A DNA stretch of 64,000 nucleotides, from positions 1 to 64,000 of IMG/VR virus record IMGVR_UViG_3300046002_008717. The stretch is one strand, 5' to 3'. Under the pieces are notes generated by a model. That model worked only from the letters and a program-made list of their open reading frames with translations, searched no databases and had not been told where the DNA came from. The first letter of the stretch is position 1. Every line of letters begins with the position of its first letter. The stretch is from a virus. A program made the position numbers and the translations under genes. Positions 9,095-41,600 of this stretch are shown piece by piece.

Positions 9095-9313
9095 ATGATT
9101 ACCAGCAATAGCGAAAATAATACAGAGAAGCAAACTATACTTAATGAAAATATGTTTCTCAAGAATAAAATAATATATTCCATAGGCTCATTAGAAACTA
9201 TTAATTATATACTTAATGATAGTGAAAATATACACGAAATGTCAGATAAAAAACTAGAGCATCTAAAAACTACTATAAATAGAGCATTAGAAAATCTCAG
9301 GGATATAACTTAA
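9095..9313 (+). CDS. Small hypothetical protein
   Basis: 72 residues, acidic and polar at the N-terminus, then predicted helices (NKIIYSIGSLETINYIL; KKLEHLKTTINRALENL). I recognise no family. A TTGTTATATATAG variant of the promoter-like motif lies 15-27 bases upstream. Its stop overlaps the stop of the convergent GT7 gene within a shared TTAA (9310-9313), so the two transcripts run into each other with no terminator between them. Confidence 0.6.
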   Translation: MITSNSENNTEKQTILNENMFLKNKIIYSIGSLETINYILNDSENIHEMSDKKLEHLKTTINRALENLRDIT

Positions 9314-9966
9314 AGAGTTACACTTATAAATTTTGAATACTGAGAAAGTTTTTTCTCTCCTATTTTTTTATATTCTAATGTAGATAAACCATCTCCCATT
9401 ATATACTCATGCGTTGGATTTTTTTGAAATAAAGCTAGTCTTTCCAAATTCTTATAGTACGGTGCTCTATTAATTATTCTTTCGTGATCTAGAGATGAAT
9501 ATCTACAATTTTTTCTGGAAACCGGTACATCCATTATAAGACACCTATGTAATACATCATCATCTTCTGCACCCCATCCCCAATACTCGTTGGCATACCC
9601 GTTTATTTTTTTAAAGCTTGATTTATCAAATATGGTAACGCCCCCAAAATATCCCTCATATGGTAATTTATAACCGAATTGTTCAGCTTCGGAAGCTAAA
9701 TGAGTAGGGCAATCAACATAACTATAATCTGAATCTACAGGTAGCATATCAACATCATGGAAAGCAAAATAATCAAAATCTGATGCTAATTCAAATCCAA
9801 TATTTAATAATTTACCTCTATTGAAATCTTTATTATCCCCCTGATTTATTACAAATATATTAAATTGTATGCCATCTTCCTTCATAGATTTTTCCATATG
9901 TGGTATGAATTTTTTAAGATGTTCTTTTCTATCTCTGTATGGGACAATAATAGCTAATTTTTCCAT
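9310..9966 (-). CDS. Family 7 glycosyltransferase (beta-1,4-galactosyltransferase-like)
   Basis: 218 residues from the ATG at 9966; an upstream in-frame start at 10011 would add only 15 non-conserved residues. The sequence follows the catalytic domain of vertebrate beta-1,4-galactosyltransferases: IIVPYRDRKEHL (6-17), FNRGKLLNIGFE (48-59), metal-binding D71-V-D73, GYFGGV (95-100) and W119-GWGAEDDD-127. Family knowledge: GT7 enzymes transfer Gal or GalNAc from UDP to GlcNAc, giving LacNAc-type units. It is transcribed divergently from the GT11 operon. Which donor it uses cannot be settled by eye. No signal or membrane anchor is present, so it would act in the cytoplasm. Confidence 0.88.
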   Translation of the reverse strand: MEKLAIIVPYRDRKEHLKKFIPHMEKSMKEDGIQFNIFVINQGDNKDFNRGKLLNIGFELASDFDYFAFHDVDMLPVDSDYSYVDCPTHLASEAEQFGYKLPYEGYFGGVTIFDKSSFKKINGYANEYWGWGAEDDDVLHRCLIMDVPVSRKNCRYSSLDHERIINRAPYYKNLERLALFQKNPTHEYIMGDGLSTLEYKKIGEKKLSQYSKFISVTL

Positions 9967-10002
9967 AATATAGTTTATTTTTTTTAGTTTGATATTGGTA
10001 AT

Positions 10003-10025
10003 TAGTTTCATTAATAATGAAACTA
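10003..10025. promoter_or_regulatory. Inverted repeat in the divergent GT7/GT11 promoter region
   Basis: TAGTTTCATT (10003-10012), spacer AAT, AATGAAACTA (10016-10025): a perfect 10-bp inverted repeat between two divergent glycosyltransferase genes. It could be an operator or a hairpin in both leaders. Nothing else is recognisable in the 108-base gap. Confidence 0.45.
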
Positions 10026-10074: not shown

Positions 10075-10866
10075 ATGATAACATTTAATAGAATAGGCTA
10101 TATGGGAAGATTGGGAAACCAAATGTTCCAAATGGCATCAACCATAGGGATAGCAAGAAAACTTAACTATGATGTAAAATTCCCATCAGAAAACTTTATA
10201 AAAGGATCAGGATATGAATATAATGGGTGCGATTTAATCGAATGTTTTGATATACCGGAAATTTTAATAACATTAAGAGATTTTATACAAATTATTTCTG
10301 GGTATACAGAAAAAGAATTTACATACAATTCAGAATTATTAAATATATCAGATTATACCAATATAAATGGATATTTGCAAACAGAAAAATATTTTATTGA
10401 TATAGAGGATGAGATAAGAAAGATATTTACATTTAAAGCCAATATACGAAATATAGGAGATGCAGTAAAAATAGAAGATGGATCACACGTTTCCTTACAC
10501 ATAAGAAGGGGAGATTATTTAAATTCAATGGACTATCATCCCGTGCAAGACCACGATTACTTTAAAAATACAATGTCGGAATTTAGCGACGATCAGAAAT
10601 TTTATATTTTTTCGGATGATATCGAATGGTGTAAATCTAAATTTATTGGAGATAGATTCAGATTTATAGAAACAGGTAGTCCTTATGTCGATATGTACAT
10701 AATGTCAAAATTTAAAAATCACATAATAGCTAATAGCTCATTTAGTTGGTGGGGAGCTTGGCTATCAGGAAGAGATTCAAAGGTAATTGCGCCAAAAAAA
10801 TGGTTTGGCCCAGCAATAAACAACGATACAGCAGACATATATTGTAAAAATTGGATAATAAAATAA
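10075..10866 (+). CDS. Family 11 glycosyltransferase (alpha-1,2-fucosyltransferase)
   Basis: 263 residues, near the usual GT11 length. Hallmark motifs are present: G11-RLGNQMF-18 at the N-terminus, H142-IRRGDY-148 (GDP-fucose binding, shared with alpha-1,2 and alpha-1,6 fucosyltransferases), and S221-SFSWWGA-228. Family knowledge: these enzymes add Fuc alpha-1,2 to terminal Gal, forming H-antigen-type structures. Genes for making GDP-fucose lie in the same run (17540-20244), which supports the assignment. It is the first gene of the plus-strand island; its stop overlaps the next ATG (TAATG). It is cytoplasmic. Confidence 0.92.
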   Translation: MITFNRIGYMGRLGNQMFQMASTIGIARKLNYDVKFPSENFIKGSGYEYNGCDLIECFDIPEILITLRDFIQIISGYTEKEFTYNSELLNISDYTNINGYLQTEKYFIDIEDEIRKIFTFKANIRNIGDAVKIEDGSHVSLHIRRGDYLNSMDYHPVQDHDYFKNTMSEFSDDQKFYIFSDDIEWCKSKFIGDRFRFIETGSPYVDMYIMSKFKNHIIANSSFSWWGAWLSGRDSKVIAPKKWFGPAINNDTADIYCKNWIIK

Positions 10867-11495
10867 TGAAAATAGGTGTAGTATTTTTCCATAAGAATCT
10901 AAATAAGATATACAGGAAAGAATGGATAGAAAAATGTATAGATTCGATTAAAAATCAAACTTATAAGAATCTAGTATTATACGAGATTGATTACGGAAAT
11001 TCTGAAACTAACCTAACCGGATGTAACAATTTCTTTTCTTTAGAAAAAGAAAATTATGCAGATGCTATGAATTTCATAATAACAGAAGCATTTAACGATG
11101 GGTGTAATTATGTATTCAATACAAATATGGATGATATATTTACATTGGATAGAATAGAGAAACAATTGGAATATTTAAATAAAGGATATGATCTGGTAAC
11201 ATCTGATTTTATGTATATTGATGAAGATGATACATTTAAACAGAACATGATACATTCACCTTATAATTATCTAATAAAGGAGCATCTTAATAATAACCAT
11301 AACATAATAGCACACCCATCAGTTGGATATAGCAAAAACTTCTGGGATAATAATAAATATGATATTACTAAAACACCAGAGGAAGATCTGGATTTATGGA
11401 GGAGAGCAATTAATAATGGATATACATTCTATATAGTTCCTGAAATATTACTATTATATAGAATACACGGAACACAAGTATCAAATAAAAACTAA
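10866..11495 (+). CDS. GT-A fold glycosyltransferase (family 2-like)
   Basis: 209 residues from the ATG at 10866, which overlaps the upstream stop (TAATG); a TTG at 10851 is a less likely start. Features of GT2 enzymes: an N-terminal nucleotide-binding strand (IGVVFFHKN), CIDSIKNQTYKNLVLYEIDYGN, a metal-binding N-M-D-D region (NTNMDDIFTLDRIEKQ) and a C-terminal DLWRRAINNGY. Donor and acceptor are unknown. The tight coupling to the GT11 gene suggests it builds or extends the same glycan. Confidence 0.8.
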   Translation: MKIGVVFFHKNLNKIYRKEWIEKCIDSIKNQTYKNLVLYEIDYGNSETNLTGCNNFFSLEKENYADAMNFIITEAFNDGCNYVFNTNMDDIFTLDRIEKQLEYLNKGYDLVTSDFMYIDEDDTFKQNMIHSPYNYLIKEHLNNNHNIIAHPSVGYSKNFWDNNKYDITKTPEEDLDLWRRAINNGYTFYIVPEILLLYRIHGTQVSNKN

Positions 11496-12116: not shown

Positions 12117-12845
12117 ATGGACTTCACTTTCGGTATAGTCACTGCAGGAAATAGATACAATATAGATCTTATAATAAAAAGTATAAGATTACTAAAGATT
12201 GAAAGATACGAAATAATTGTAATAGGTGGGGATGAAATAGTGGGTAATGATGTGATACATTTAGAATTTCCTGATAATATAAAAGGGGATTTATCAATAA
12301 AGAAAAATAGAATAACTGATGCTGCAAAATACGAAAATATAGTTTATTTACATGACTATATAATATTCGATATAAATTGGTATAATGGGTTTCTAAAATT
12401 TGGTAACGATTTTGATGTATGTATGAATAAAATAAATAATACAGACGGAACCCGATATAGAGATTGGTGCTTATGGAAAGATGATGCTGACTTTTATACT
12501 AGACCTTTAAATTATCTGATACCATATGATATGAAAAATCTATCGGGAATGATGTATATTTCAGGAGCTTACTGGGTTGCTAAAAAAGAATTCATGGCTA
12601 AAAATAGACTTAATGAAAAATTATCATGGGGTCAAGGTGAAGATGTTGAATGGTCATTAAGGGTAAGAGATAACACAGCATTTAAAATGAATATACATTC
12701 AAAAGTTAATTTATTAAAATATAAGGATAGGATTTTCAATGAAATTTCGGAAACTGAAAGAATTATTTTAGATGCTATCCCATTTTATATAAATACAAAA
12801 GCATACGAGCTTCTTATAAATAATCATTTATCGCAATGGATATAA
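12117..12845 (+). CDS. GT-A fold glycosyltransferase, copy 1 of a tandem pair
   Basis: 242 residues. N-terminus FTFGIVTAGNRYNIDLIIKSI is a GT-A nucleotide-binding start. YLHDYIIFDINWYNGFL occupies the metal-site region, and GQGEDVEWSLRVR resembles the acidic acceptor-loop motif of GT7C-like and GT27-like enzymes. The protein shares these segments with the next gene (YENIVYLHDYI; WYNGFL.FG.D.D.CMN; GEGEDIEWS), so the two arose by duplication. Its last 10 bases overlap the start of the paralogue. Specificity is unknown. Confidence 0.75.
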   Translation: MDFTFGIVTAGNRYNIDLIIKSIRLLKIERYEIIVIGGDEIVGNDVIHLEFPDNIKGDLSIKKNRITDAAKYENIVYLHDYIIFDINWYNGFLKFGNDFDVCMNKINNTDGTRYRDWCLWKDDADFYTRPLNYLIPYDMKNLSGMMYISGAYWVAKKEFMAKNRLNEKLSWGQGEDVEWSLRVRDNTAFKMNIHSKVNLLKYKDRIFNEISETERIILDAIPFYINTKAYELLINNHLSQWI

Positions 12846-13636
12846 TCAACAAAGGAATAACTTTTGGTATAATAACAACCAAAGAAACACAATCTTATCT
12901 TGATATCATAATAGATACCATAAAAAAACAGCAAATACCCAATAATCTATATGAAATAATAATAGTTGGTAATTGTGATATAATAGACATAGAAAATACA
13001 ACGGTAATCCCTTTTGATGAATCGGTAAAGCATATGTGGATAACCAAGAAAAAAAATACGATAACAAATAACGCAAAATTTGAAAATATAGTTTATCTGC
13101 ATGATTATATTGCATTATGCAATGGATGGTATAATGGATTCTTAAATTTTGGATTTGATTGGGATATATGCATGAACCCAATATCGAATTTAGACGGTGG
13201 ATCCAGAATATTAGATTGGATGGGCTTACCTGATGATAATATTTACGGAAACGTAGTTCTGCCATATCACTATAAGGGATCTAGTGGAATGTACATACCT
13301 GGTTATTATTGGATAGCTAAAAAAAATATAATGTTAGAATTCCCACTGAATGAAAATTATTTGTGGGGAGAAGGTGAAGATATAGAATGGAGTAAAAGAG
13401 TACTTGGCGGATTTCCTCCTCCGTGGTTAAAATCTCGTAATGATATACTAAATAATCACGTAGCTATAAAAAAACATAAATATGTTATAAATACAGAATC
13501 AAGAGTTTTTTCTTTTAAATATAAAGAATCGCATATAAATTTTTTTAATAAATATGATTTACACAGTGGCGACGAATCTAGACCTTTAGCATCGAATACA
13601 GAAAATTATGAATATTTAAAATATAGGAAATCATGA
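12836..13636 (+). CDS. GT-A fold glycosyltransferase, copy 2 of a tandem pair
   Basis: 266 residues, homologous to the preceding protein along its length: GITFGIITTKETQSYLDIII, FENIVYLHDYIALCNGWYNG, FGFDWDICMNPI, and the acidic GEGEDIEWSKRV. It has a slightly longer C-terminus (HKYVINTESRVFSFKYKES). It overlaps the upstream gene by 10 bases and the downstream gene by ATGA, so translation is probably coupled. Donor and acceptor are unknown. Confidence 0.75.
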   Translation: MDIINKGITFGIITTKETQSYLDIIIDTIKKQQIPNNLYEIIIVGNCDIIDIENTTVIPFDESVKHMWITKKKNTITNNAKFENIVYLHDYIALCNGWYNGFLNFGFDWDICMNPISNLDGGSRILDWMGLPDDNIYGNVVLPYHYKGSSGMYIPGYYWIAKKNIMLEFPLNENYLWGEGEDIEWSKRVLGGFPPPWLKSRNDILNNHVAIKKHKYVINTESRVFSFKYKESHINFFNKYDLHSGDESRPLASNTENYEYLKYRKS

Positions 13637-14985
13637 AGTTGATAATATTTGATTTGGACGGAGTATTAGTAGAAGCAAAAAATATACACTTTGTTGCTTT
13701 AAATAAAGCACTAGGTGAAAAATATGCTATAGAATGGAATGAGCATTTATCCATATATGACGGTTTAAAAACAAATCAGAAATTAGAAATGCTTACTATC
13801 AGAAAGGGACTTCCTGTAGAAAGCTATAAAAAAATATGGAATGATAAACAAAAATACACAGCTGATGCATTAGCAGATTTGAAAGAATCGGAGGATTTAA
13901 AAAAATGTATAAATAGTTTATTGGAAGATGGGTATAAACTTGCTGTTTGTTCCAATAGTATAAGAAAGACTGTACTAATAGTTCTTTCTAAATTAGGAAT
14001 AATCGGAAGTTTTGATCTTATACTATCAAATGAGGACGTAAAGAATAGCAAACCTCATCCAGAAATATATTGGAAAGCAATGTCAATGCTGGAATGCCTA
14101 CCTGAGGAAACACTTATAGTAGAGGATTCTCCATATGGTTTACTAGCAGCATCCCGTAGTAGAGCAGAAATAATGAGGGTAAAATCGCCAGATGATGTAA
14201 CGTATATTAATATAAATAAATATATAAAAAAAGAAAAAATGAATAATATACCTAAATGGAAAGATGAGAAACTTAATATACTTATACCAATGGCAGGTGC
14301 GGGTAGTAGATTTGAGAAAGCTGGATATACGTTTCCCAAACCATTAATAGAAGTAAAGAATAAGCCAATGATACAAGTTGTCGTTGAAAATTTAAATATG
14401 GATGCCAACTATATCTATATAGTACAAAAAAGCCACAGAGAAAAATATAATCTAGATACTCTTCTCAATTTAATTACACCAGGATGTAAAATAGTGGAAG
14501 TTGACGGAATAACCGAGGGAGCAGCATGTACAAGTTTACTGGCCAAAGAATATATTAATAACGATTCACCTTTATTTTTTGCAAATTCTGATCAATTCGT
14601 AGAATGGGATTCTAATGAATTTATGTATAAGATGAACGAAACAAATGCTGATGGCGGAATTGTAACATTCAACGCTACCCATCCTAAATGGTCATTCGCT
14701 AAAATGGATCAAAGCGGATTGGTAACGGAAGTTGCAGAAAAAAATCCAATATCAGATATAGCAACGGTTGGCTATTATTATTGGAAAAAAGGATCAGATT
14801 TTGTAAAATATGCAGAAAGAATGATAGAAAAAAATATAAGAACAAATAATGAATTTTATGTATGTCCCGTTTTTAATCAAGCAATAGAAGACAAATTAGA
14901 AATACGAATATTCAACGTTAAGAATATGTGGGGATTAGGAACGCCAGAAGATCTAAATTACTATCTAGAAAATTATACAAAATGA
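13633..14985 (+). CDS. Bifunctional HAD-family phosphatase / sugar nucleotidyltransferase
   Basis: 450 residues in two domains. Residues 1-~205 are a HAD hydrolase of the beta-phosphoglucomutase type: D7-x-D9-G-V, CSNSIRKT (motif II), SNEDVKNSKPHPEIYW (motif III Lys) and EDSPYGLLAA (motif IV). Residues ~215-450 are a nucleotidyltransferase: L217-IPMAGAGSRF-227 followed by FPKPLIEV, ANSDQFVEW, and WGLGTPEDLNYYL at the end. Such fusions could dephosphorylate or isomerise a sugar phosphate and activate it as a nucleotide sugar, or couple repair to activation. It overlaps both neighbours by ATGA. Substrate unknown. Confidence 0.85.
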   Translation: MKLIIFDLDGVLVEAKNIHFVALNKALGEKYAIEWNEHLSIYDGLKTNQKLEMLTIRKGLPVESYKKIWNDKQKYTADALADLKESEDLKKCINSLLEDGYKLAVCSNSIRKTVLIVLSKLGIIGSFDLILSNEDVKNSKPHPEIYWKAMSMLECLPEETLIVEDSPYGLLAASRSRAEIMRVKSPDDVTYININKYIKKEKMNNIPKWKDEKLNILIPMAGAGSRFEKAGYTFPKPLIEVKNKPMIQVVVENLNMDANYIYIVQKSHREKYNLDTLLNLITPGCKIVEVDGITEGAACTSLLAKEYINNDSPLFFANSDQFVEWDSNEFMYKMNETNADGGIVTFNATHPKWSFAKMDQSGLVTEVAEKNPISDIATVGYYYWKKGSDFVKYAERMIEKNIRTNNEFYVCPVFNQAIEDKLEIRIFNVKNMWGLGTPEDLNYYLENYTK

Positions 14986-16797: not shown

Positions 16798-17529
16798 ATG
16801 AAAATGAAAAAAACTATTACGCTAAATTTAATAGCAACTAATAAATATACGATTTTTTTAGATCAAATTATAGAATCTGCAGTAAAATTTTTTATGACCG
16901 ATTCGCTTTTAAAGTTTATAATTTATACCGATTCATTGGATATAGAAGAAAAAGAAAATCTAAAAGTTGTTCATATAGAACATGAAATATGGCCGGGACC
17001 AACACTTAAAAGATTTCATTATTTCTGTAAAGGTGAAAGCTTGATAGAAGAATCAGATTTTTCTTTTTATGTTGATGTTGATAGCACATTCACAAAAGAA
17101 ATTACATCCGATATATTTGGTGGCATAAGAACAGATTGCATCATAGGAACATTGCATCCAGGATTTTATAATAGTATAGGAACACCAGAAAGAAATCACG
17201 AATCTACCGCATGCATACCATACGGGAGCGATAATTTATATTATTGTGGAGGATTTTTTGGGGCAGATTCTGCTTCTTTTATAGAGATGTCAAAAAAAAT
17301 AAGTGGCAATATAGATTTAGATCTTGATAAAAATATAATTGCAATCTGGCATGATGAATCGCATTTAAATAAATATTTTTTTGAAACCCCGCCTGATATA
17401 ATATTGGGTATCGGTTTTACGTGCCCAGAAGAACAGATTCATGATAGGATAATATTATATGGCCAGCCAAGCATAGTATTTATTAACAAAGGATCCGATG
17501 AAAAAAGAAATGAACTTAGAAATACATAA
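16798..17529 (+). CDS. Family 6 glycosyltransferase (ABO blood-group / alpha-1,3-Gal(NAc)-transferase type)
   Basis: 243 residues, the size of a GT6 catalytic domain without a membrane anchor. The diagnostic motifs of vertebrate ABO, alpha-1,3-GalT and Forssman enzymes are all present: metal-binding D93-V-D95 (in FYVDVDSTF), G117-TLHPGFY-124, YYC-G151-GFFG-155 and W184-HDESHLNKY-193, with E187 at the position of the catalytic Glu303 of ABO. C150-G151-G152 align with ABO residues 266-268 (Leu-Gly-Gly in A, Met-Gly-Ala in B), hinting at a GalNAc-compatible pocket. Family knowledge: the acceptor is usually Fuc-alpha-1,2-Gal, which GT11 (10075) would supply. An internal ATG at 16804 is a possible alternative start. 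Confidence 0.93.
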   Translation: MKMKKTITLNLIATNKYTIFLDQIIESAVKFFMTDSLLKFIIYTDSLDIEEKENLKVVHIEHEIWPGPTLKRFHYFCKGESLIEESDFSFYVDVDSTFTKEITSDIFGGIRTDCIIGTLHPGFYNSIGTPERNHESTACIPYGSDNLYYCGGFFGADSASFIEMSKKISGNIDLDLDKNIIAIWHDESHLNKYFFETPPDIILGIGFTCPEEQIHDRIILYGQPSIVFINKGSDEKRNELRNT

Positions 17530-17539
17530 ATTATAAAAA

Positions 17540-19255
17540 ATGTTAGATTTAAAACAAACAACTATAATTATACCCATAAAGATAGAACATCAAGATAGGT
17601 ATAGAAATGCAAAGACTGTCTTAAATTTTATGAATACCCATTTCGAAACTAATGTATTCATATACGAATCCTCCGATAATGGAATAAGTAGATTAGATTT
17701 CTTAGATGAACTTACAAATCTAAAAATAAAAACATGGATAATAAAAGACGAAGATTCTTTTCATAGAACGAAGTATTTAAATATAATGCTCGATGAAATA
17801 GAAACTGATGCGGTAGCTAATTATGATATTGATATCTTATTGGAGCCAACAAATCTATATAACTGTCAAAATTTATTAATATACAATAAAGCTGATGTTA
17901 TATTTCCATACGGGTACGGAAATAACCAAATACAGATACTAGAAACATTTAACTATCCAGGATTTGCAGAATCCGGATATAATTTAGATTATATTAAAAA
18001 ATCTGACAAAAAATTAAATCATACTTCAGAATGCGGGCATTGTGTAATGTTCAGAACCTCAGTATATAGGGAAGGATTCGGTGAAAATGAAAACTTTATA
18101 TCATATGGACCTGAGGATAAGGAAAGAATGGATAGATTTAAAAAAATGAAATATAATGTTAGATGGATGCCAGGTGAAACTGTCTATCATTTAGAACACT
18201 ATAGGGGAAATGATAGCTGGCAAACAAATCCGTACTATCGATCAAATTGGGAAATATTTGAAAGATTGAAGGGATTATCATATGGGGAGCTAATGGATTA
18301 TTACATAAATCAGATATATCAAAAAAAATATAATACAATAGGAACACAAAAAAAAATTCTAATAACTGGTGGAAATGGTTTAATAGGAAGAGCTTTTTCT
18401 GGAGATGTACGTAAAATAGGATCAAAAAATTGTGATTTAAGAAATCCAAGTGAAGTAAAAGCATTTATAGAAAAAGGAGAATATACTGGGATAATACATT
18501 GTGCTGCTAAAGTTGGTGGTATACAAGGAAATCTAGATAGACCTGGTGAATTCTTTTATGATAATATAATGATGAATACTAACGTTATAGAAGAAGCAAG
18601 AAAAGCAGGAATTAAAAAATTAATATTTTTTGCTTCTACCTGCGTTTTTCCTGATTCAGTTGAATATCCGCTTAGCCCTGAAAAAATACATAATGGGAAT
18701 CCACATCCATCCAATTATGCATATGCATTTGCTAAAAGAATGGGAGATGTGCAAATACAAGCATATAAAGATCAATATGATCTTGACTATTTTACTGTAA
18801 TCCCAGGTAATGTATATGGTCCAGGAGATATGTACAATCTTAATGATGCCCACGTAATTCCGGCATTAATACATAAGATGTATTTAGCTAAATTGAATGG
18901 AACCGAATTTAAAGTATGGGGAAGTGGTACTCCATTAAGAGAATTTATATTCTCAGAAGATGTTGCAAAACTTACTATGCTACTATATGATAATTATACG
19001 GGTAGAGATCCGGTTATACTATCAACATCAGAAGAAATATCGATTAGAGAGGTAGTTCTTTTAATAGCGGAACTTATGGAATATAAAGGATCAATAATTT
19101 TCGATTCATCTAAACCCGATGGTCAATATAGAAAACCTAGCGATAATTCAGTAATAACAAATATGTTTCCGGATTTTAAATTTACACCAATTAGAGAAGG
19201 TTTAAGTAAATCTATAAATTGGTTTATCGAAAACTATCCAAATGTTAGACTATAA
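17540..19255 (+). CDS. fcl (C-terminal domain): Glycosyltransferase / GDP-L-fucose synthase fusion
   Basis: 571 residues. Residues 1-~265 form a GT-A-type domain (TTIIIPIKIEHQDRYRNA; ANYDIDILLEP with a D-x-D; ISYGPEDKERMDRFKKM). Residues ~272-571 are a full GDP-L-fucose synthase (GDP-4-keto-6-deoxymannose epimerase/reductase): nucleotide-binding G277-GNGLIG-283, AAKVGGI, catalytic S366-x-C368 (FASTCVFP), Y395-AFA-K399, and VYGPGDMYN...HVIPALI with the catalytic-type His. Family knowledge: this enzyme makes GDP-fucose after GMD, encoded immediately downstream with 5 bases between. Fusing the donor synthase to a transferase suggests channeling. The glycosyltransferase specificity is unknown. 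Confidence 0.9.
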   Translation: MLDLKQTTIIIPIKIEHQDRYRNAKTVLNFMNTHFETNVFIYESSDNGISRLDFLDELTNLKIKTWIIKDEDSFHRTKYLNIMLDEIETDAVANYDIDILLEPTNLYNCQNLLIYNKADVIFPYGYGNNQIQILETFNYPGFAESGYNLDYIKKSDKKLNHTSECGHCVMFRTSVYREGFGENENFISYGPEDKERMDRFKKMKYNVRWMPGETVYHLEHYRGNDSWQTNPYYRSNWEIFERLKGLSYGELMDYYINQIYQKKYNTIGTQKKILITGGNGLIGRAFSGDVRKIGSKNCDLRNPSEVKAFIEKGEYTGIIHCAAKVGGIQGNLDRPGEFFYDNIMMNTNVIEEARKAGIKKLIFFASTCVFPDSVEYPLSPEKIHNGNPHPSNYAYAFAKRMGDVQIQAYKDQYDLDYFTVIPGNVYGPGDMYNLNDAHVIPALIHKMYLAKLNGTEFKVWGSGTPLREFIFSEDVAKLTMLLYDNYTGRDPVILSTSEEISIREVVLLIAELMEYKGSIIFDSSKPDGQYRKPSDNSVITNMFPDFKFTPIREGLSKSINWFIENYPNVRL

Positions 19256-32313: not shown

Positions 32314-35300
32314 ATGAATTTTAATAATTCACTTATATTTCCTCCAAAACTTTTTCTTGGTATAATATTACCAAATCAAACTACAGTGGTTGGAACTTAT
32401 TCAGATCCAACTAATCCGTATAACGGCTTTCCGTATAGATGGAGCATAGTTTTAAATATAGATATACAACAACATTCTAATCCAAATACACCAACCCCTT
32501 ATTTATATGATGTAAATGATATAATAGTTGGTATGTGGATAGGACAAACTAATGGTAATTCATTTAAAATAGTTGGAATAACATCAACTCTTGGATCAGA
32601 AGAAATAACATTAATAATAGAGGATACTGATTTTATGAATCTGATATCATCACCAGATCAAATAGGAACCAATGGGCCATTAGAATCGTCACCTACAGTA
32701 ATTTTTAATTTAAATGATTTAGGTGAACCTATATTTGATCCATTACAGAATCAAAGCAGTCAATTACCAATTTATAGTTATTGGGTAAATGATTTAGAAT
32801 CAAGATTTAGATTTAGAAATTATTATCAAAGTTTTTTCTATATAGATCCAGGTAGCAATACTAGTGGAATCACTGGTGGAGATCCAGTATATCTTTCTCC
32901 CGAATCTACCTTTATAAAAGTGGATTCAACATCACAAGATGATATAGATAAGCTTTTTGGTTATGCATCTAGCGGAAATCTTCCATATCCAGGACATCTT
33001 ACAGTTACCCCATCCGGTAGATATATGAGTGATCTTGTAGATCTAATAGGACCAACTGGTAGCGTATTATATTTAGATACTACTATAACAGGAACTAATA
33101 ATTTAAATTATATCAAACCTGCAACCGGACCAATTAAACCAGTTTATATAAAAATAGATAACAATAGTGCTATACTTATAAGTTCATCAAGTTCTGCATC
33201 AAGCGGGGGTGGAGTAGGAAGCGGTACATCAGGAACTAGTGGATCAAGTACAGGTATACCTGGAGATAATGGTACATCAGGGACAAGTGGAACTTCTGGT
33301 TTATCTGGAACTAGGGGAACCTCAGGTTCATCGGGTTCATCAGGAACTAGCGGAACTAAAGGAACCTCAGGTTCATCAGGAACCTCAGGTATAAATGGAA
33401 CTAATGGTTTATCCGGAACTAGTGGTATAAATGGAACAAGCGGAACTTCTGGAACTAGTGGTATAAACGGAACTAGCGGAACTGCAGGAACTAGCGGTAA
33501 TGATGGAACTAGTGGAACTTCTGGTTTATCAGGAACTAGCGGTATAAGCGGAACTTCAGGAACTAGTGGAGATTCGGGTTCATCTGGAACTTCTGGAACT
33601 AGTGGAGATTCGGGTTCATCTGGAACTTCTGGAACTAGTGGAACTTCTGGAACTAGTGGAACTTCTGGTGCTACCGGAACTAGTGGAACTTCTGGTGCTA
33701 CCGGAACTAGTGGAACTTCTGGTAATAACGGAACTAGTGGAACTTCGGGTTCATCAGGAACTAGCGGAACTTCTGGTAATAACGGAACTAGTGGAACCTC
33801 GGGTTCATCAGGAACTAGCGGAACTTCTGGTAATAACGGAACTAGTGGAACTTCTGGTAATAACGGAACTAGTGGAACTTCCGGTATAAACGGAACTTCA
33901 GGAACTAGTGGTGTTAATGGAACAAGTGGAACTTCTGGTTCATCCGGAACTAGCGGTAATAACGGAACTAATGGAACTTCTGGTTCATCAGGAACCTCCG
34001 GTGTTAACGGAACTAGTGGAACTTCAGGAACAAGTGGTAATAACGGAACAAGTGGAACTTCAGGAACTAGTGGTTCATCAGGAACTAGCGGAACTTCAGG
34101 AACTAGTGGTTCATCAGGAACTAGTGGAACTTCAGGAATTAGTGGTTCATCAGGAACTAGTGGAACTTCTGGAATTAGTGGTTCATCAGGAACTAGTGGT
34201 AATAATGGAACAAACGGTCTTTCTGGTGATAAATATGCAACTATATCAACTACAACATTAACCATAGCTACCGGAGTTCAATCATTAACAGTAGGATTAG
34301 GATTAGCATATACAACAGGACAATCATTAGTTATTGCAAATACTTCAATTAATAGAATGGAGGGTACTGTTGGAACATACAATCCTATTGATGGGGCATT
34401 AGTGGGGAACATTACTGTTATTTTTGGATCAGGAACATTTTCAGCATGGGAAGTCAATCTAGGAGGTGCACAGGGTGCAGACGGAAGTAGCGGTATTTCT
34501 GGTTCATCCGGAACTAGTGGAACTTCAGGCACTTCCGGTGCTAACGGAACTAGTGGAACTTCGGGTTCATCTGGAACTAGTGGAACTTCAGGCACTTCTG
34601 GTGCTAATGGAACTAGTGGAACTTCAGGCACTTCTGGTGCTAATGGAACTAGTGGAACTTCAGGCACTTCTGGTGCTAACGGAACTAGTGGAACTTCTGG
34701 CTCAGCAGGAACTTCTGGTTCAGCAGGTTCAGCAGGAACTTCTGGTTCAGCAGGTTCATCAGGAACTTCTGGTTCAGCAGGTTCATCTGGAACTTCTGGT
34801 TCATCTGGAACTTCTGGTTCATCTGGTTCTAGTGGTTCATCAGGTTCATCTGGAACTTCTGGTTCATCTGGAACTTCTGGTTCATCTGGTACTAGTGGTT
34901 CATCAGGTTCATCAGGTTCATCAGGTTCATCAGGTTCATCAGGAACTTCAGGAACTTCTGGTACTAGTGGAACATCAGGTTCGTCTGGTACTAGTGGAAC
35001 ATCACCTATTTTTCAACGTATTACAGTTGCCGATGCTGATTATACAATAAGTGGTAGTAATAATCAAATAATAGTATACACTTCAATTACAGCAAGAAGA
35101 GTAGTTACTTTGCCTGCTATCTCTACTATTGGCCAAGTTATACAAATTTTAGATGAGAGTGGTTCATTTAATACAACTAAAAGAGTTAGAGTAGAAAGAG
35201 CAGGTGCAGATACAATAGAAGGTGATAGCTATAATATACAGATATCACCATATTCTTCTGCTAGCTATACAAGTGATGGAGTTAGTAGATGGAGTATTTC

Positions 35301-37131
35301 GGGTAGACATCCTAGATTATCATCTGGTAATATATTGCTATCAACATTCACTGATTTAGGAACAGGATCTGTTACTTTAGGAAATAATGGATTATATAAT
35401 TTATTCACGAATATAAGTGGATTAGGTAATATAAGAACCTATGAAATTAATGGCGGTACATTTTCTCTAGTAGATGCTGCAACGAATTATATAGTCAGTG
35501 ATTATAATGGGGGTTCACCTATAATAAGATTAACTACAGATGTTACCATAATAGATGAGACTACTATATGCCCAATATACACCATATATAGATCAGGTAT
35601 AGAATTACATATAATCGATTGGGACCAATTAGGGCTTGCTCTCGTTAATAAACTACATCAATCTATAGTAAAAACACAAAGATATAGATTAGAATCTGGT
35701 TTAGGTGTAGGTGAAGTTGCCACAAGAAGAATTACTGTTGGCGGTGGAATTGTATGGATCGGAGCAAATAAATTCGCATTAGGTCCTTTTAATTCAACCA
35801 CTGACACAACTCATTTGGCATATCATGTTGGAGGCGTATGGACATATTCAGCAATCACGCAATATAATAATACACAATATGATAACGGAACAGATTTAGT
35901 TTCAGTATCACCTAATAAATATGCAGTAAATTACATATACAGAGGAGTTGAAATTGATAGTGAATGCTATGTAGTTTTAGGAGGTGGAAACTATACATTA
36001 ATAGAAGCACATGGTAGTACACCACCTATAAATTTACCAGAACTAATAACAAGCCATGCTGTGTTAGTTGGTAGAATAGTAGTAGAACAGGGTACAGATA
36101 CAGCACAACAAATAGATAGTGCATTTAGTGAAACTTTTGTAATTTCGTCAACTGCTATACATAATGATTTAAGTGGAATCCAAGGGGGTACTGGTGGAGA
36201 ATATTATCACCTACCATTAAACGTTTATAATAATGTTATTGCAAACGGTGGAATAGGAACACCAGGAACTTCAGGAACTAGTGGTTCATCAGGAACATCT
36301 GGTGCTAATGGAACTAGTGGAACATCAGGAACATCAGGAACTAGTGGTATAAATGGAACTAGTGGTTCATCAGGAACTTCAGGTATAAATGGAACTAGTG
36401 GTTCATCAGGAACTTCAGGTATAAATGGAACATCAGGAACTAGTGGTTCATCGGGTACATCTGGTGCTAATGGAACTTCGGGAACTAGTGGTTCATCAGG
36501 AACATCTGGTGCTAATGGAACTTCGGGAACTAGTGGTATAAATGGAACTAGTGGTTCATCGGGAACATCTGGTGCTAATGGAACTTCGGGAACTAGTGGT
36601 TCATCAGGAACATCTGGTGCTAATGGAACTTCGGGAACTAGTGGTTCATCGGGTACTTCGGGTGCTAATGGAACTTCTGGAACTAGCGGTTCATCAGGAA
36701 CATCTGGTGCTAATGGAACATCAGGAACTAGTGGTATAAACGGAACTAGTGGAACATCGGGAGCTAATGGAACTTCTGGAACAGCAGGAAGTAGTGGAAT
36801 ACAAGGAACTAGTGGTACAAGTGGAACTGCCCCATATAAATCATATATAATGACCACCGGAGCAACATATACATTTACCGATTTTAATACAGTGAATACA
36901 TTATCATTAAATAAAACTGTAAGTTCATCAACAACAGTTACTTTAAATCAAAGCCCTGTATTGAATGATTTCTATATAGTAAAAGATAGAAAGGGTGATT
37001 CAGTATTAAATCCAATTACAGTAGATGGAGGGATATATAATATAGATGGTAATGCAACTATTACAATATCTCAATCAAATAAGCCATCCCTAACATTTAT
37101 GTTCGAGGGTGAAGAATACATAATAATATAA
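32314..37131 (+). CDS. Giant tail fibre with Gly-Thr-Ser (TSG) repeats
   Basis: 1605 residues. N-domain 1-~290 (unknown, GPTGSVLYLDT near its end), then a TSG tripeptide array (~305-638), an 84-residue beta domain (~639-722) also found in the second giant fibre, a second array (~724-897), a central beta region (~900-1310, with SGIQGGTGGEYYHL at its end, a motif known from phage fibres), a third array (~1315-1505), and a C-terminal cap (~1506-1605). The repeats are GTSGTSGSSGTSG-type units with Ala-Asn, Ile-Asn or Val-Asn inserts. They probably form a collagen-like or low-complexity shaft. The Thr/Ser density makes them natural targets for O-glycosylation. Confidence 0.8.
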   Translation: MNFNNSLIFPPKLFLGIILPNQTTVVGTYSDPTNPYNGFPYRWSIVLNIDIQQHSNPNTPTPYLYDVNDIIVGMWIGQTNGNSFKIVGITSTLGSEEITLIIEDTDFMNLISSPDQIGTNGPLESSPTVIFNLNDLGEPIFDPLQNQSSQLPIYSYWVNDLESRFRFRNYYQSFFYIDPGSNTSGITGGDPVYLSPESTFIKVDSTSQDDIDKLFGYASSGNLPYPGHLTVTPSGRYMSDLVDLIGPTGSVLYLDTTITGTNNLNYIKPATGPIKPVYIKIDNNSAILISSSSSASSGGGVGSGTSGTSGSSTGIPGDNGTSGTSGTSGLSGTRGTSGSSGSSGTSGTKGTSGSSGTSGINGTNGLSGTSGINGTSGTSGTSGINGTSGTAGTSGNDGTSGTSGLSGTSGISGTSGTSGDSGSSGTSGTSGDSGSSGTSGTSGTSGTSGTSGATGTSGTSGATGTSGTSGNNGTSGTSGSSGTSGTSGNNGTSGTSGSSGTSGTSGNNGTSGTSGNNGTSGTSGINGTSGTSGVNGTSGTSGSSGTSGNNGTNGTSGSSGTSGVNGTSGTSGTSGNNGTSGTSGTSGSSGTSGTSGTSGSSGTSGTSGISGSSGTSGTSGISGSSGTSGNNGTNGLSGDKYATISTTTLTIATGVQSLTVGLGLAYTTGQSLVIANTSINRMEGTVGTYNPIDGALVGNITVIFGSGTFSAWEVNLGGAQGADGSSGISGSSGTSGTSGTSGANGTSGTSGSSGTSGTSGTSGANGTSGTSGTSGANGTSGTSGTSGANGTSGTSGSAGTSGSAGSAGTSGSAGSSGTSGSAGSSGTSGSSGTSGSSGSSGSSGSSGTSGSSGTSGSSGTSGSSGSSGSSGSSGSSGTSGTSGTSGTSGSSGTSGTSPIFQRITVADADYTISGSNNQIIVYTSITARRVVTLPAISTIGQVIQILDESGSFNTTKRVRVERAGADTIEGDSYNIQISPYSSASYTSDGVSRWSISGRHPRLSSGNILLSTFTDLGTGSVTLGNNGLYNLFTNISGLGNIRTYEINGGTFSLVDAATNYIVSDYNGGSPIIRLTTDVTIIDETTICPIYTIYRSGIELHIIDWDQLGLALVNKLHQSIVKTQRYRLESGLGVGEVATRRITVGGGIVWIGANKFALGPFNSTTDTTHLAYHVGGVWTYSAITQYNNTQYDNGTDLVSVSPNKYAVNYIYRGVEIDSECYVVLGGGNYTLIEAHGSTPPINLPELITSHAVLVGRIVVEQGTDTAQQIDSAFSETFVISSTAIHNDLSGIQGGTGGEYYHLPLNVYNNVIANGGIGTPGTSGTSGSSGTSGANGTSGTSGTSGTSGINGTSGSSGTSGINGTSGSSGTSGINGTSGTSGSSGTSGANGTSGTSGSSGTSGANGTSGTSGINGTSGSSGTSGANGTSGTSGSSGTSGANGTSGTSGSSGTSGANGTSGTSGSSGTSGANGTSGTSGINGTSGTSGANGTSGTAGSSGIQGTSGTSGTAPYKSYIMTTGATYTFTDFNTVNTLSLNKTVSSSTTVTLNQSPVLNDFYIVKDRKGDSVLNPITVDGGIYNIDGNATITISQSNKPSLTFMFEGEEYIII
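33226..34227 (+). repeat. TSG-coding tandem repeat array 1
   Basis: About 1 kb of degenerate 9-base units (GGAACTAGT, GGAACTTCT, GGTTCATCA) encoding GTS or GSS. ACTAGT occurs many times. Stop-free in all forward and several reverse frames because of the repeat. Confidence 0.9.
34228..34482 (+). repeat. Duplicated beta-domain segment, copy A
   Basis: Encodes DKYATISTTTLTIATG to VNLGGAQGADG. Closely similar in DNA and protein to 40411-40665 in the other giant fibre, including flanking TSG arrays on both sides. Confidence 0.85.
34483..35004 (+). repeat. TSG-coding tandem repeat array 2
   Basis: About 0.5 kb of 9-base units, rich in GCAGGT/TCAGCA variants (GSA) near the middle. Encodes the second shaft of the 1605-residue fibre. 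Confidence 0.9.
36256..36829 (+). repeat. TSG-coding tandem repeat array 3
   Basis: About 0.57 kb of units with regular Gly-Ala-Asn and Gly-Ile-Asn spacers, encoding the third shaft before the C-terminal cap. Confidence 0.9.
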
Positions 37132-38622: not shown

Positions 38623-41600
38623 ATGGCAAATTTTTCATATTTTTATAATTTAGCAGTACAACCTGAAAATTTGTATAATAATATTTTTACAAATCTTACT
38701 GTATATCCGACTAAGTTATATTATGATTTAATGACATTTGATATTGAAATAGTATTTGACTTTTCATTATCTGCTCCACAGCAGGTAATATTAGAGGATA
38801 CTGTTAATAATAGTCCTCCAAAAGATCCAAATGATGCGATATTTTCAGGTGTTATTGCAAATACTTATAATAAAGTAACAATAACACAACCTGCTAATAA
38901 TGCTAGTTTAACTATAAGCGACGGTAAAACACTTTCAGTACCATTAGATGCTTGGGTTTCCAATACAAATACAGGGGATCAAGATTCTACTACTTTATAC
39001 CTAGCAGGATTAACAGGATCTACATATTCAAGTCTTCAAGATTTACAAAATTTATTTCATTCAACCGGCTGGATAAACGGAGGTGATATCACTGATGCAG
39101 GTTCTGGTTTAATAACAGTAACAGGTGGACAGGGTGCGATACGAGGAATAGATAGTGAATTAGCTATTATATATTTTAGTGATTTTCCTGCATCAAGTCC
39201 TTCCGATGTTATATTAACGGATCTTAGTGATAATTATATTTATGTTGAGTATAATGCGGGTTCACCTAGAATCGTTGCTACTGATATTGCCAGAAATGAT
39301 AATAATACAAATTTTTTATTAGGTATTGTTTATAGAAATGCTTCCGTATTAAATGTTAATCAGGGAATTAGATTCGGGGTAAAAGATAAAAACCACGAAA
39401 GTTTGATTGGTTTACAAGGAGGTACTGCTGGAGAACATATTCATTTAACTGCAGCAGAATATGCATTAATAGGAATAGGAGGAACTAGTGGAACATCAGG
39501 TTCATCAGGAACCTCCGGAACTAGTGGTTCATCAGGAACTTCTGGTGCTAATGGAACTAGTGGTTCATCAGGAACTTCTGGAACATCAGGTTCATCAGGA
39601 ACTTCTGGTGCTAATGGAACTAGTGGAACATCAGGTTCATCAGGAACTAGTGGTGCTAATGGAACTAGTGGAACATCAGGTTCATCAGGAACTTCTGGTG
39701 CTAATGGAACTAGTGGAACATCAGGTTCATCAGGAACTTCTGGTGCTAATGGAACTAGTGGTTCATCAGGAACTTCTGGAACATCAGGTTCATCAGGAAC
39801 TAGTGGTGCTAATGGAACTAGTGGAACATCAGGTTCATCAGGAACTAGTGGTGCTAATGGAACTAGTGGTGCTAATGGAACTAGTGGAACTTCTGGAACA
39901 TCAGGAACTAGTGGTGCTAATGGAACTAGTGGAACTTCAGGTTCATCAGGAACTTCAGGTGCTAATGGAACTAGCGGTTCATCAGGAACTTCAGGTGCTA
40001 ATGGAACTAGTGGAACTTCAGGTTCATCAGGAACTTCAGGTGCTAATGGAACTAGCGGTTCATCAGGAACTTCAGGTGCTAATGGAACTAGCGGTTCATC
40101 AGGAACTTCAGGAACTTCAGGAACTAGTGGTGCTAATGGAACTAGTGGAACATCAGGTTCATCAGGAACTTCAGGAACATCGGGTGCTAATGGAACATCA
40201 GGAACATCGGGTGCTAATGGAACATCAGGTTCATCTGGAACTAGTGGAACATCGGGTGCTAATGGAACTAGTGGAACATCAGGTTTATCTGGAACTAGTG
40301 GAACTTCAGGTATAAATGGAACTAGTGGAACATCAGGTTTATCTGGAACTAGTGGAACTTCAGGTATAAATGGAACTAGTGGTTCATCAGGAACTAGTGG
40401 TCTTCCAGGTGATAAATATGCAACTACATCAACTACATCATTAACCATAGCTACAGGAGCTCAATCTTTAACAGTAGGATTAGGATTAGCATATACAACA
40501 GGGCAATCATTAGTTATTGCAAACACATCAGTTAATAGAATGGAGGGTACTGTTGGAACATATAATCCAACGAATGGGTCATTAACTGGAACCATCACTG
40601 TTATTTTTGGATCTGGTACATTTTCATCATGGGAAGTTAATTTAGGCGGTGCTCAGGGAGCAGATGGAAGTAGCGGTATTTCTGGTTCATCTGGAACTTC
40701 TGGTTCATCTGGAACTTCTGGTGCTAATGGAACATCAGGAACTAGTGGTACATCAGGAACTAGTGGTATTAATGGAACTAGTGGTTCGTCAGGTACTAGT
40801 GGTTTATCAGGTACTAGTGGTTCATCAGGTACTAGTGGTATTAATGGAACTAGTGGTTCATCAGGTACTAGTGGTTCATCAGGAACCAGTGGTATTAGTG
40901 GAACATCAGGAACTTCGGGTGCTAATGGAACATCAGGAACTAGTGGTATTAATGGAACTAGTGGTTCATCAGGAACTTCAGGTGCTAATGGAACATCAGG
41001 AACTAGTGGTATTAATGGAACATCAGGAACTAGTGGTATTAATGGAACTAGTGGAACATCAGGAACTAGTGGTATTAATGGAACTAGTGGTTCATCAGGA
41101 ACTTCAGGTGCTAATGGAACATCAGGAACTAGTGGAACATCAGGAACTAGTGGTATTAATGGAACCAGCGGAACATCAGGAACTTCAGGTGCTAATGGAA
41201 CATCAGGAACTAGTGGTATTAATGGAACTAGCGGAACATCTGGTTTAACGGGAACATCAGGAACATCTGGTTTAACCGGAACATCAGGAACCTCTGGTTT
41301 AACAGGAACATCAGGAACCTCTGGTTTAACAGGAACATCAGGAACCTCTGGTTTAACAGGAACCTCTGGTTCTAGTGGAACTTCTGGATTAACAGGAACA
41401 TCTGGTTCTAGTGGAACTTCTGGATTAACAGGAACTAGTGGAACATCAGGAACTAGTGGTCTTAATGGAACATCAGGAACTAGTGGTCTTAATGGAACAT
41501 CTGGAACTAGTGGTCTTAATGGAACATCTGGAACTAGTGGTTTAACAGGAACTTCCGGAACTAGTGGTTTAACAGGAACTTCTGGAACTAGTGGTTTAAC

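What the first reader, a model, noticed from the sequence alone, without database searches (positions are those of the whole stretch)
16798..17529. ABO-type GT6 enzyme with metal-binding DVD and a Gly at the A/B specificity site
Seen: D93-V-D95, GTLHPGFY, YYCGGFFG, WHDESHLNKY with E187. From memory of the family, most characterised bacterial GT6 enzymes lack the DXD (NXN) and are metal-independent, while vertebrate enzymes and a cyanophage member keep DXD. Residues C150-G151-G152 align with ABO 266-268, where Gly268 favours GalNAc (A-type) and Ala268 favours Gal (B-type). Cys at the 266 position is unlike either human form.
Basis: partly seen in the sequence, partly recalled or inferred. Interest (0 to 1): 0.75.

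Follow-up and report, generated by a model that had tools for sequence, protein, structure and literature searches.

The report
Phage blood-group-A-like sugar-adding enzyme
A large bacterial virus carries a relative of the human ABO blood-group enzyme, set in a gene cassette that could build a blood-group-A-like sugar (galactose, then fucose, then probably N-acetylgalactosamine), most likely to redecorate its host's or its own surface; phage versions of the enzyme were known, the fuller cassette seems new.

Summary
Window 16798-17529 encodes a 243-residue GT6 enzyme with D93-V-D95, GTLHPGFY, YYCGGFFG and E187. Its AlphaFold model (pLDDT 94) superposes on human GTA and Bacteroides BoGT6a (Z about 30). 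The DXD motif is not an oddity: 91 of 93 viral GT6 sequences examined have it, and DXD and NXN enzymes separate by one change on the tree. Cys at the 266 site recurs in relatives. The A-type reading is plausible, not proven.

The neighbourhood tells more. The record is a fragment of a large T4-superfamily phage. GT6 lies in a cassette with a GT11 fucosyltransferase, GDP-mannose dehydratase, GDP-fucose synthase and a beta-1,4-galactosyltransferase-like GT7 (37% identical to animal B4GALT1). Four phage contigs share this set. GT11 lies near GT6 in 77 of 91 viral DXD loci; among phage GMD loci, 10/10 with GT6 and 5/21 without have GT11. Best explanation: a metal-dependent, retaining alpha-1,3-GalNAc (or Gal) transferase capping Fuc-alpha-1,2-Gal, the last step of an A/H-antigen-like glycan. 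Phage GT6 is known (cyanophages); the GT7-GT11-GT6-GDP-fucose set appears undescribed in the papers searched. Donor, metal, acceptor and target remain untested.

The parts
16798..17529 (+). GT6 (ABO-type) glycosyltransferase, 243 aa; D93-V-D95 metal site, H120, C150-G151-G152, E187, K231
10075..10866 (+). GT11, alpha-1,2-fucosyltransferase-like (HIRRGDY motif at residue 142)
   Evidence: PF01531 118 bits; phrog_2644; motif
9310..10011 (-). GT7, beta-1,4-galactosyltransferase-like, divergent from GT11; Y118/Y121 align with B4GALT1 Y286/Y289 (that numbering from general knowledge)
   Evidence: PF13733 87 bits, PF02709 84 bits; B4GALT1 2ae7 156 bits; 37% identity over 219 columns
17540..19255 (+). 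fusion: N-terminal GT7C-like domain (phrog_15655) + C-terminal GDP-L-fucose synthase (Fcl)
   Evidence: phrog_15655 195 bits; NF047922 241 bits, below its cut-off of 500; two separate genes in L096, L097, L099
19261..20244 (+). GDP-mannose 4,6-dehydratase (Gmd)
   Evidence: PF16363 386 bits; TIGR01472 383 bits, cut-off 415
10851..11495 (+). GT2-family glycosyltransferase of the cassette
   Evidence: PF00535 40 bits
11502..12113 (+). FkbM-type methyltransferase
   Evidence: PF05050 34 bits
12117..12845 (+). paralogue pair member, unknown glycan-cluster protein (resembles the next ORF)
   Evidence: no Pfam match above cut-off; shared HMM hits
12836..13636 (+). paralogue pair member, unknown glycan-cluster protein
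13633..14985 (+). HAD phosphatase + nucleotidyltransferase fusion, sugar activation likely
   Evidence: PF13419 109 bits, PF00483 47 bits
16330..16770 (+). small protein with a glycerophosphodiesterase-like start (judged by eye), directly before GT6; also before GT6 in L097 and L098
   Evidence: phrog_34507 109 bits

Best explanation
The ORF is a phage GT6 enzyme that, with Mn2+ or Mg2+ held by D93/D95, transfers GalNAc (less likely Gal) with retention from the UDP-sugar onto O3 of a galactose that carries an alpha-1,2-fucose, i.e. the same chemistry as the human A transferase. It is the capping step of a phage-encoded cassette: Gmd and Fcl make GDP-fucose, the GT7 enzyme adds beta-1,4-galactose, GT11 adds alpha-1,2-fucose, GT6 adds the alpha-1,3 sugar. 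The glycan most likely remodels the infected cell's surface (lipopolysaccharide or capsule) and so blocks adsorption of rival phages. Shown: family, predicted fold, catalytic residues, gene order, co-occurrence. Inferred: metal dependence, donor, acceptor, GT7 linkage, biological target.
For: Family and fold. Model pLDDT 94.1 from the window sequence plus 37 relatives. Catalytic set conserved: W65, T69, R72, H120, E187, N191 and K231; K231 is invariant in 38 sequences and ends the alignment at GTA residue 346 in 3ioj. A C-terminal K-x5-R spacing, as in human ABO K346-R352 (ABO letters from general knowledge), occurs in 76/91 viral DXD and 12/48 cellular NXN enzymes. DXD tracks metal dependence: BoGT6a (NXN) is metal-independent, the Parachlamydia DXD enzyme is metal-dependent (PMC3961637). 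Acceptor: GT11 in the fetched neighbourhood (about 8 kb each side) of 77/91 viral DXD GT6 genes, 52/58 when both flanks are long; also 37/48 cellular NXN genes, the group that holds BoGT6a, which acts on 2'-fucosyllactose. Control: of 31 phage GMD loci, 10/10 with GT6 and 5/21 without GT6 have GT11 (Fisher p 7e-5; related contigs, so not a strict probability). GT7-GT11...GT6-phrog_15655-Fcl-Gmd set kept in window, L096, L097 and L099. Donor: LGG/AGG tripeptides give A activity (PMC6351642). Surface role: cyanophage LPS clusters proposed to block superinfection (PMC2984593; PMC7824862).
Against: No enzyme of this clade has been assayed as far as I know. CGG was not among the tripeptides tested in PMC6351642. 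The cluster has other glycosyltransferases, so the glycan is larger than an A trisaccharide and the order of steps is a guess. In the window GT11 is 5.9 kb from GT6, not adjacent. Contig G003 (L098) has GT6 but no GT11, and G010 has GT7 and GT11 but no GT6; both may be fragments. The target (host surface or virion) rests on analogy.
Confidence: 0.55

Rival explanations
1. B-type or dual donor: the enzyme transfers galactose (or both sugars) to the same fucosylated acceptor.
For: Donor choice in GT6 depends on the whole scaffold: several tripeptides give mixed activities, e.g. human ABO with GGA makes A and B (PMC6351642). Cys at 266 is untested in this scaffold.
Against: Gly268 with AGG or LGG is A-type in ABO, and AGG BoGT6a uses UDP-GalNAc (PMC3961637).
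Confidence: 0.2
2. GT6 catalysis on a different acceptor: a phage- or host-specific polysaccharide branch without H-type structure, the GT11 and GDP-fucose genes serving another branch of the same glycan.
For: Large cluster with several other transferases; GT11 not adjacent in the window; six viral loci with long flanks lack GT11; animal alpha-3GT, a family member, uses unfucosylated galactosides (general knowledge).
Against: The GT11-GT6 association holds over distant viral and bacterial branches.
Confidence: 0.2
3. The glycan is put on the phage's own particle, for instance its Thr/Ser-rich collagen-like tail fibres, to mask or stabilise them.
For: Two tail-fibre-like proteins of the window hold 131 and 132 Gly-Thr-Ser repeats and 33 and 35 Asn-Gly-Thr triplets.
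Against: That repeat pattern is found in none of nine other GT6 phage records; the records may be fragments, and the pattern is strict.
Confidence: 0.15
4. A decayed or inactive copy picked up from a bacterium.
For: Altered C-terminus after K231.
Against: Intact frame, conserved catalytic residues, dN well below dS, kept with synteny in other phages.
Confidence: 0.03

Closest known systems
Phage GT6 family (PHROG 3317; P-SSM2 PSSM2_268 and other cyanophage 'glycosyltransferase family 6' genes)
   Same: DXD, about 230-240 aa enzyme, in surface-glycan clusters with GT11 and GDP-mannose dehydratase or epimerases
   Different: Only about 28-37% identical; cyanophages have AGG or QGC rather than CGG; no match to the window's GT7 in 50,697 phage records
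BoGT6a of Bacteroides ovatus (PDB 4ayj, 4cj8)
   Same: Closest solved structure: Z 30.8, 235 residues aligned, 1.9 A, 34% identity; Gly at the 268 site; minimal-length enzyme
   Different: NXN, metal-independent; AGG; different C-terminal tail
Human ABO transferases GTA/GTB (PDB 3zgf, 5bxc)
   Same: DVD motif, GTLHPGFY, YYxGGFFG, WHDESHLNKY; Z about 29, 28% identity
   Different: Phage enzyme has no N-terminal stem or membrane anchor; Cys instead of Leu/Met at 266; far diverged; ABO's place in the tree unresolved (20/0 support)
Parachlamydia acanthamoebae GT6
   Same: Prokaryotic DXD enzyme shown to need Mg2+ or Mn2+ (PMC3961637); Chlamydiota sequences examined here also fall on the DXD side
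   Different: Chlamydiota sequences form a different clade from the window; that very protein was not in the tree
Cyanophage and jumbo-phage LPS / capsule clusters (PMC7824862, PMC2984593)
   Same: Phage cluster of transferases and nucleotide-sugar enzymes thought to alter the host surface
   Different: Here a beta-1,4-galactosyltransferase-like GT7 completes a type-2 A/H-like route; phage group related to huge Lak-like and Flavobacterium phages

Membership tests
CAZy GT6 / Pfam PF03414 | Family profile over cut-off | tested here: met
   108 bits, cut-off 25; NCBIfam NF041524 175 bits but below its 250 cut-off
CAZy GT6 / Pfam PF03414 | GT-A fold as in GTA and BoGT6a | tested here: met
   Predicted model, Z 29-31
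CAZy GT6 / Pfam PF03414 | Catalytic Glu in (W)HDES | tested here: met
   E187, aligned with BoGT6a E192 and the ABO HDES Glu
CAZy GT6 / Pfam PF03414 | Retaining alpha-1,3-Gal(NAc) transfer | not testable with these tools
   needs an enzyme assay
Metal-dependent (DXD) GT6 branch | DXD at the NXN/DXD site | tested here: met
   D93-V-D95
Metal-dependent (DXD) GT6 branch | Groups with DXD, not NXN, members | tested here: met
   NXN set split off at 89/92; window in a viral DXD clade at 100/98
Metal-dependent (DXD) GT6 branch | Metal requirement | not testable with these tools
   assay with Mn2+ and EDTA
A-type (GalNAc) GT6 | Gly at position 268 within an LGG or AGG tripeptide | tested here: inconclusive
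   Gly268 equivalent present (G152) but the tripeptide is CGG
A/H-antigen-like pathway | GDP-fucose synthesis, alpha-1,2-FucT and GT6 encoded together | tested here: met
   Gmd, Fcl, GT11, GT6 in one cluster; Fcl and Gmd scores are below the NCBIfam equivalog cut-offs
A/H-antigen-like pathway | beta-1,4-galactosyltransferase for a type-2 chain | tested here: inconclusive
   GT7 37% identical to B4GALT1 with the donor-site Tyr conserved; linkage untested

The most novel reading that the evidence does not exclude
Large phages encode an almost self-contained route to a blood-group-A/H type-2-like determinant, including a beta-1,4-galactosyltransferase of the animal B4GALT type, and use it to coat the infected cell or the virion. 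GT6 chemistry on fucosylated galactose would then be at home in phages as well as in vertebrates and bacteria, with DXD as the older state and NXN as one later change.
Probability: 0.3. Interest if true: 0.7.

Novelty: new variant of a known kind. Interest (0 to 1): 0.5.

Why it matters
If right, ABO-like antigen synthesis is a recurrent phage tool and not only an animal and gut-bacterial trait: phages could print A/H-like sugars on bacterial surfaces, which bears on phage competition and on environmental sources of ABO-like antigens. The phage enzyme is small, lacks a membrane anchor and is DXD-type, so it offers a clean pair with NXN BoGT6a for testing how GT6 enzymes lost their need for metal, and a possible reagent for making A-type glycans.

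Tried and rejected
Control with the FkbM neighbour as viral query gave no loci; the GMD control was used instead. Tail-fibre collagen repeats as the glycan carrier: the repeat pattern is absent from nine other GT6 phage records, so kept only as a rival. Exclusively animal-like origin of GT7: not claimed, because Azospirillum replicons encode a 34-36% identical protein, although 0 of 1,085 sampled Bacteroidota, Bacillota and Cyanobacteriota genomes pass the Pfam PF13733 cut-off (samples only; the same search does ring in five viral records over the cut-off). NXN phages: the two viral NXN sequences (L008, L013) are unverified faecal scaffolds and may be bacterial. Close kinship to vertebrate ABO: the tree cannot place ABO (support 20/0, long branch). 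GT11 has no sequence match to a solved structure at E 0.001. Several key GT6 papers (Sci Rep 2:940, JBC 284:25126) and the P-SSM2 genome paper were not held.

Full report
Where it is. The window is bases 1-64,000 of a 111,728-base virus record. It encodes T4-type functions: UvsX-like recombinase, DnaB-like helicase, SbcC, large terminase, tail sheath and tail fibres, and outside the window two T4-like portal proteins, a gp21-like prohead protease and a Gp23 capsid protein. Tail sheath and portal are nearest to huge uncultured phages, Prevotella Lak phages and, for the sheath, a Flavobacterium phage, so this is a large T4-superfamily phage or a fragment of one, perhaps of Bacteroidota (host is inference). 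No tRNA genes were found in it.

The observation. Family membership is beyond doubt: Pfam 108 bits, PHROG 3317, BoGT6a 139 bits and human ABO about 88 bits by sequence. AlphaFold with 38 sequences gave pLDDT 94.1 and pTM 0.91; the model superposes on BoGT6a with Z 30.8 over 235 residues and on human GTA with Z about 29 over 233 residues.

DXD versus NXN. I collected GT6 sequences from named phages, 80 viral contigs and 80 bacterial genomes. After alignment, 91 of 93 viral sequences have DXD; cellular ones are 27 DXD, 48 NXN and 4 other. The viral set is biased towards relatives of the window (best 80 of 537 confirmed loci). On a maximum-likelihood tree of 123 sequences, DXD and NXN need one change, with the NXN side (plus its few odd variants) split off at 89/92; the window lies in a viral DXD clade at 100/98. 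Human ABO is the only vertebrate row and cannot be placed. Published work ties NXN to metal independence and DXD to metal dependence and already reports GT6 genes in two cyanophages (PMC3961637). So the enzyme is very probably metal-dependent, and having DXD is ordinary for a phage GT6.

Position 266-268. C150-G151-G152 aligns with LGG of ABO and AGG of BoGT6a. Human ABO with LGG or AGG makes A antigen, with MGA makes B, with GGA makes both (PMC6351642). CGG therefore suggests GalNAc, at moderate confidence. CGG occurs in 10 of 91 viral DXD sequences, including the close relatives of the window, and in some bacteria.

C-terminus. K231 is invariant among 38 aligned relatives and matches the Lys of BoGT6a (231) and alpha-3GT (359) that stabilises the leaving UDP (PMC3961637; structural end points). 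A K-x5-R spacing, as in human ABO, occurs in 76/91 viral DXD and 24/27 cellular DXD sequences but in 12/48 NXN ones. In the window R237 fits that spacing and R241 fits the structural end point; which of the two acts is open.

The cassette. Upstream are a GT11 fucosyltransferase-like gene and, divergent from it, a GT7 gene 37% identical to animal B4GALT1 over 219 columns, with the two donor-site tyrosines conserved. Directly downstream come a fused phrog_15655-GDP-fucose synthase and GDP-mannose dehydratase. L096 (G001), L097 (G002, a 430-kb record) and L099 (G004) carry the same set in the same order, with phrog_15655 and the synthase as separate genes. This is the gene set for GDP-fucose and for Gal, Fuc and GalNAc/Gal transfer in the order known from A-antigen synthesis.

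Is GT11 near GT6 more than cluster richness? GT11 lies in the fetched neighbourhood of 77 of 91 viral DXD loci, 52 of 58 when both flanks are long, and of 37 of 48 cellular NXN loci. Among 31 phage loci fetched by GMD alone, all 10 that hold GT6 hold GT11, against 5 of 21 that do not. Contigs are related, so the p value (7e-5) is only a guide.

How it most likely works. Gmd and Fcl supply GDP-fucose; GT7 places beta-1,4-galactose; GT11 fucosylates it at O2; GT6 with a bound divalent metal caps O3 with GalNAc or Gal with retention. The cluster's other transferases and the FkbM methyltransferase would build or trim the rest. Cyanophage clusters of this sort are thought to change the host surface and exclude rival phages (PMC2984593; PMC7824862); the same role is the likeliest here. 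Everything after sequence, predicted fold and gene order is inference.

What is new. GT6 in phages, its DXD and its pairing with GT11 are visible in public records. I found no paper in the held library that describes a phage GT7-GT11-GT6-GDP-fucose set (the library lacks most subscription papers), and no GT7 match in 50,697 phage records. Hence 'new variant of a known kind', interest 0.5.

Noticed in passing
window 9310-10011 (-): Animal-B4GALT-type GT7 in a phage; seen otherwise in a handful of viral contigs (G001, G002, G004, G010, fragments in G011 and G012) and in Azospirillum replicons, not in 50,697 named phage records.
   Followed up: partly
window 17540-19255: phrog_15655 protein fused in frame to GDP-fucose synthase; relatives keep two genes.
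   Followed up: partly
window 32314-37131 and 38623-42873: Tail-fibre-like proteins built largely of collagen-like Gly-Thr-Ser and Gly-X-Asn-Gly-Thr repeats (131 and 132 GTS); the pattern is absent from nine other GT6 phage records.
   Followed up: partly
L219 10043-13313 (record 74043-77313): Two consecutive genes, each a full-length T4-like portal protein (183 and 228 bits), suggesting a duplicated portal.
   Followed up: no
window 12117-13636: Two adjacent paralogous ORFs without Pfam match whose relatives are frequent in viral and bacterial GT6 neighbourhoods; perhaps an uncharacterised glycosyltransferase family.
   Followed up: no
L220 14189-15592 (record 98189-99592): Asparagine-synthase-like gene with a glutaminase domain in the phage; role unknown.
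   Followed up: no
L009 9998-10711, L010 9995-10714, L011 10004-10732, L012 8001-8741, L015 7995-8708: A separate marine-phage DXD GT6 clade with Q-G-C at 266-268 that branches apart from the main viral group, with GT11 beside or near it; a different donor is possible.
   Followed up: no
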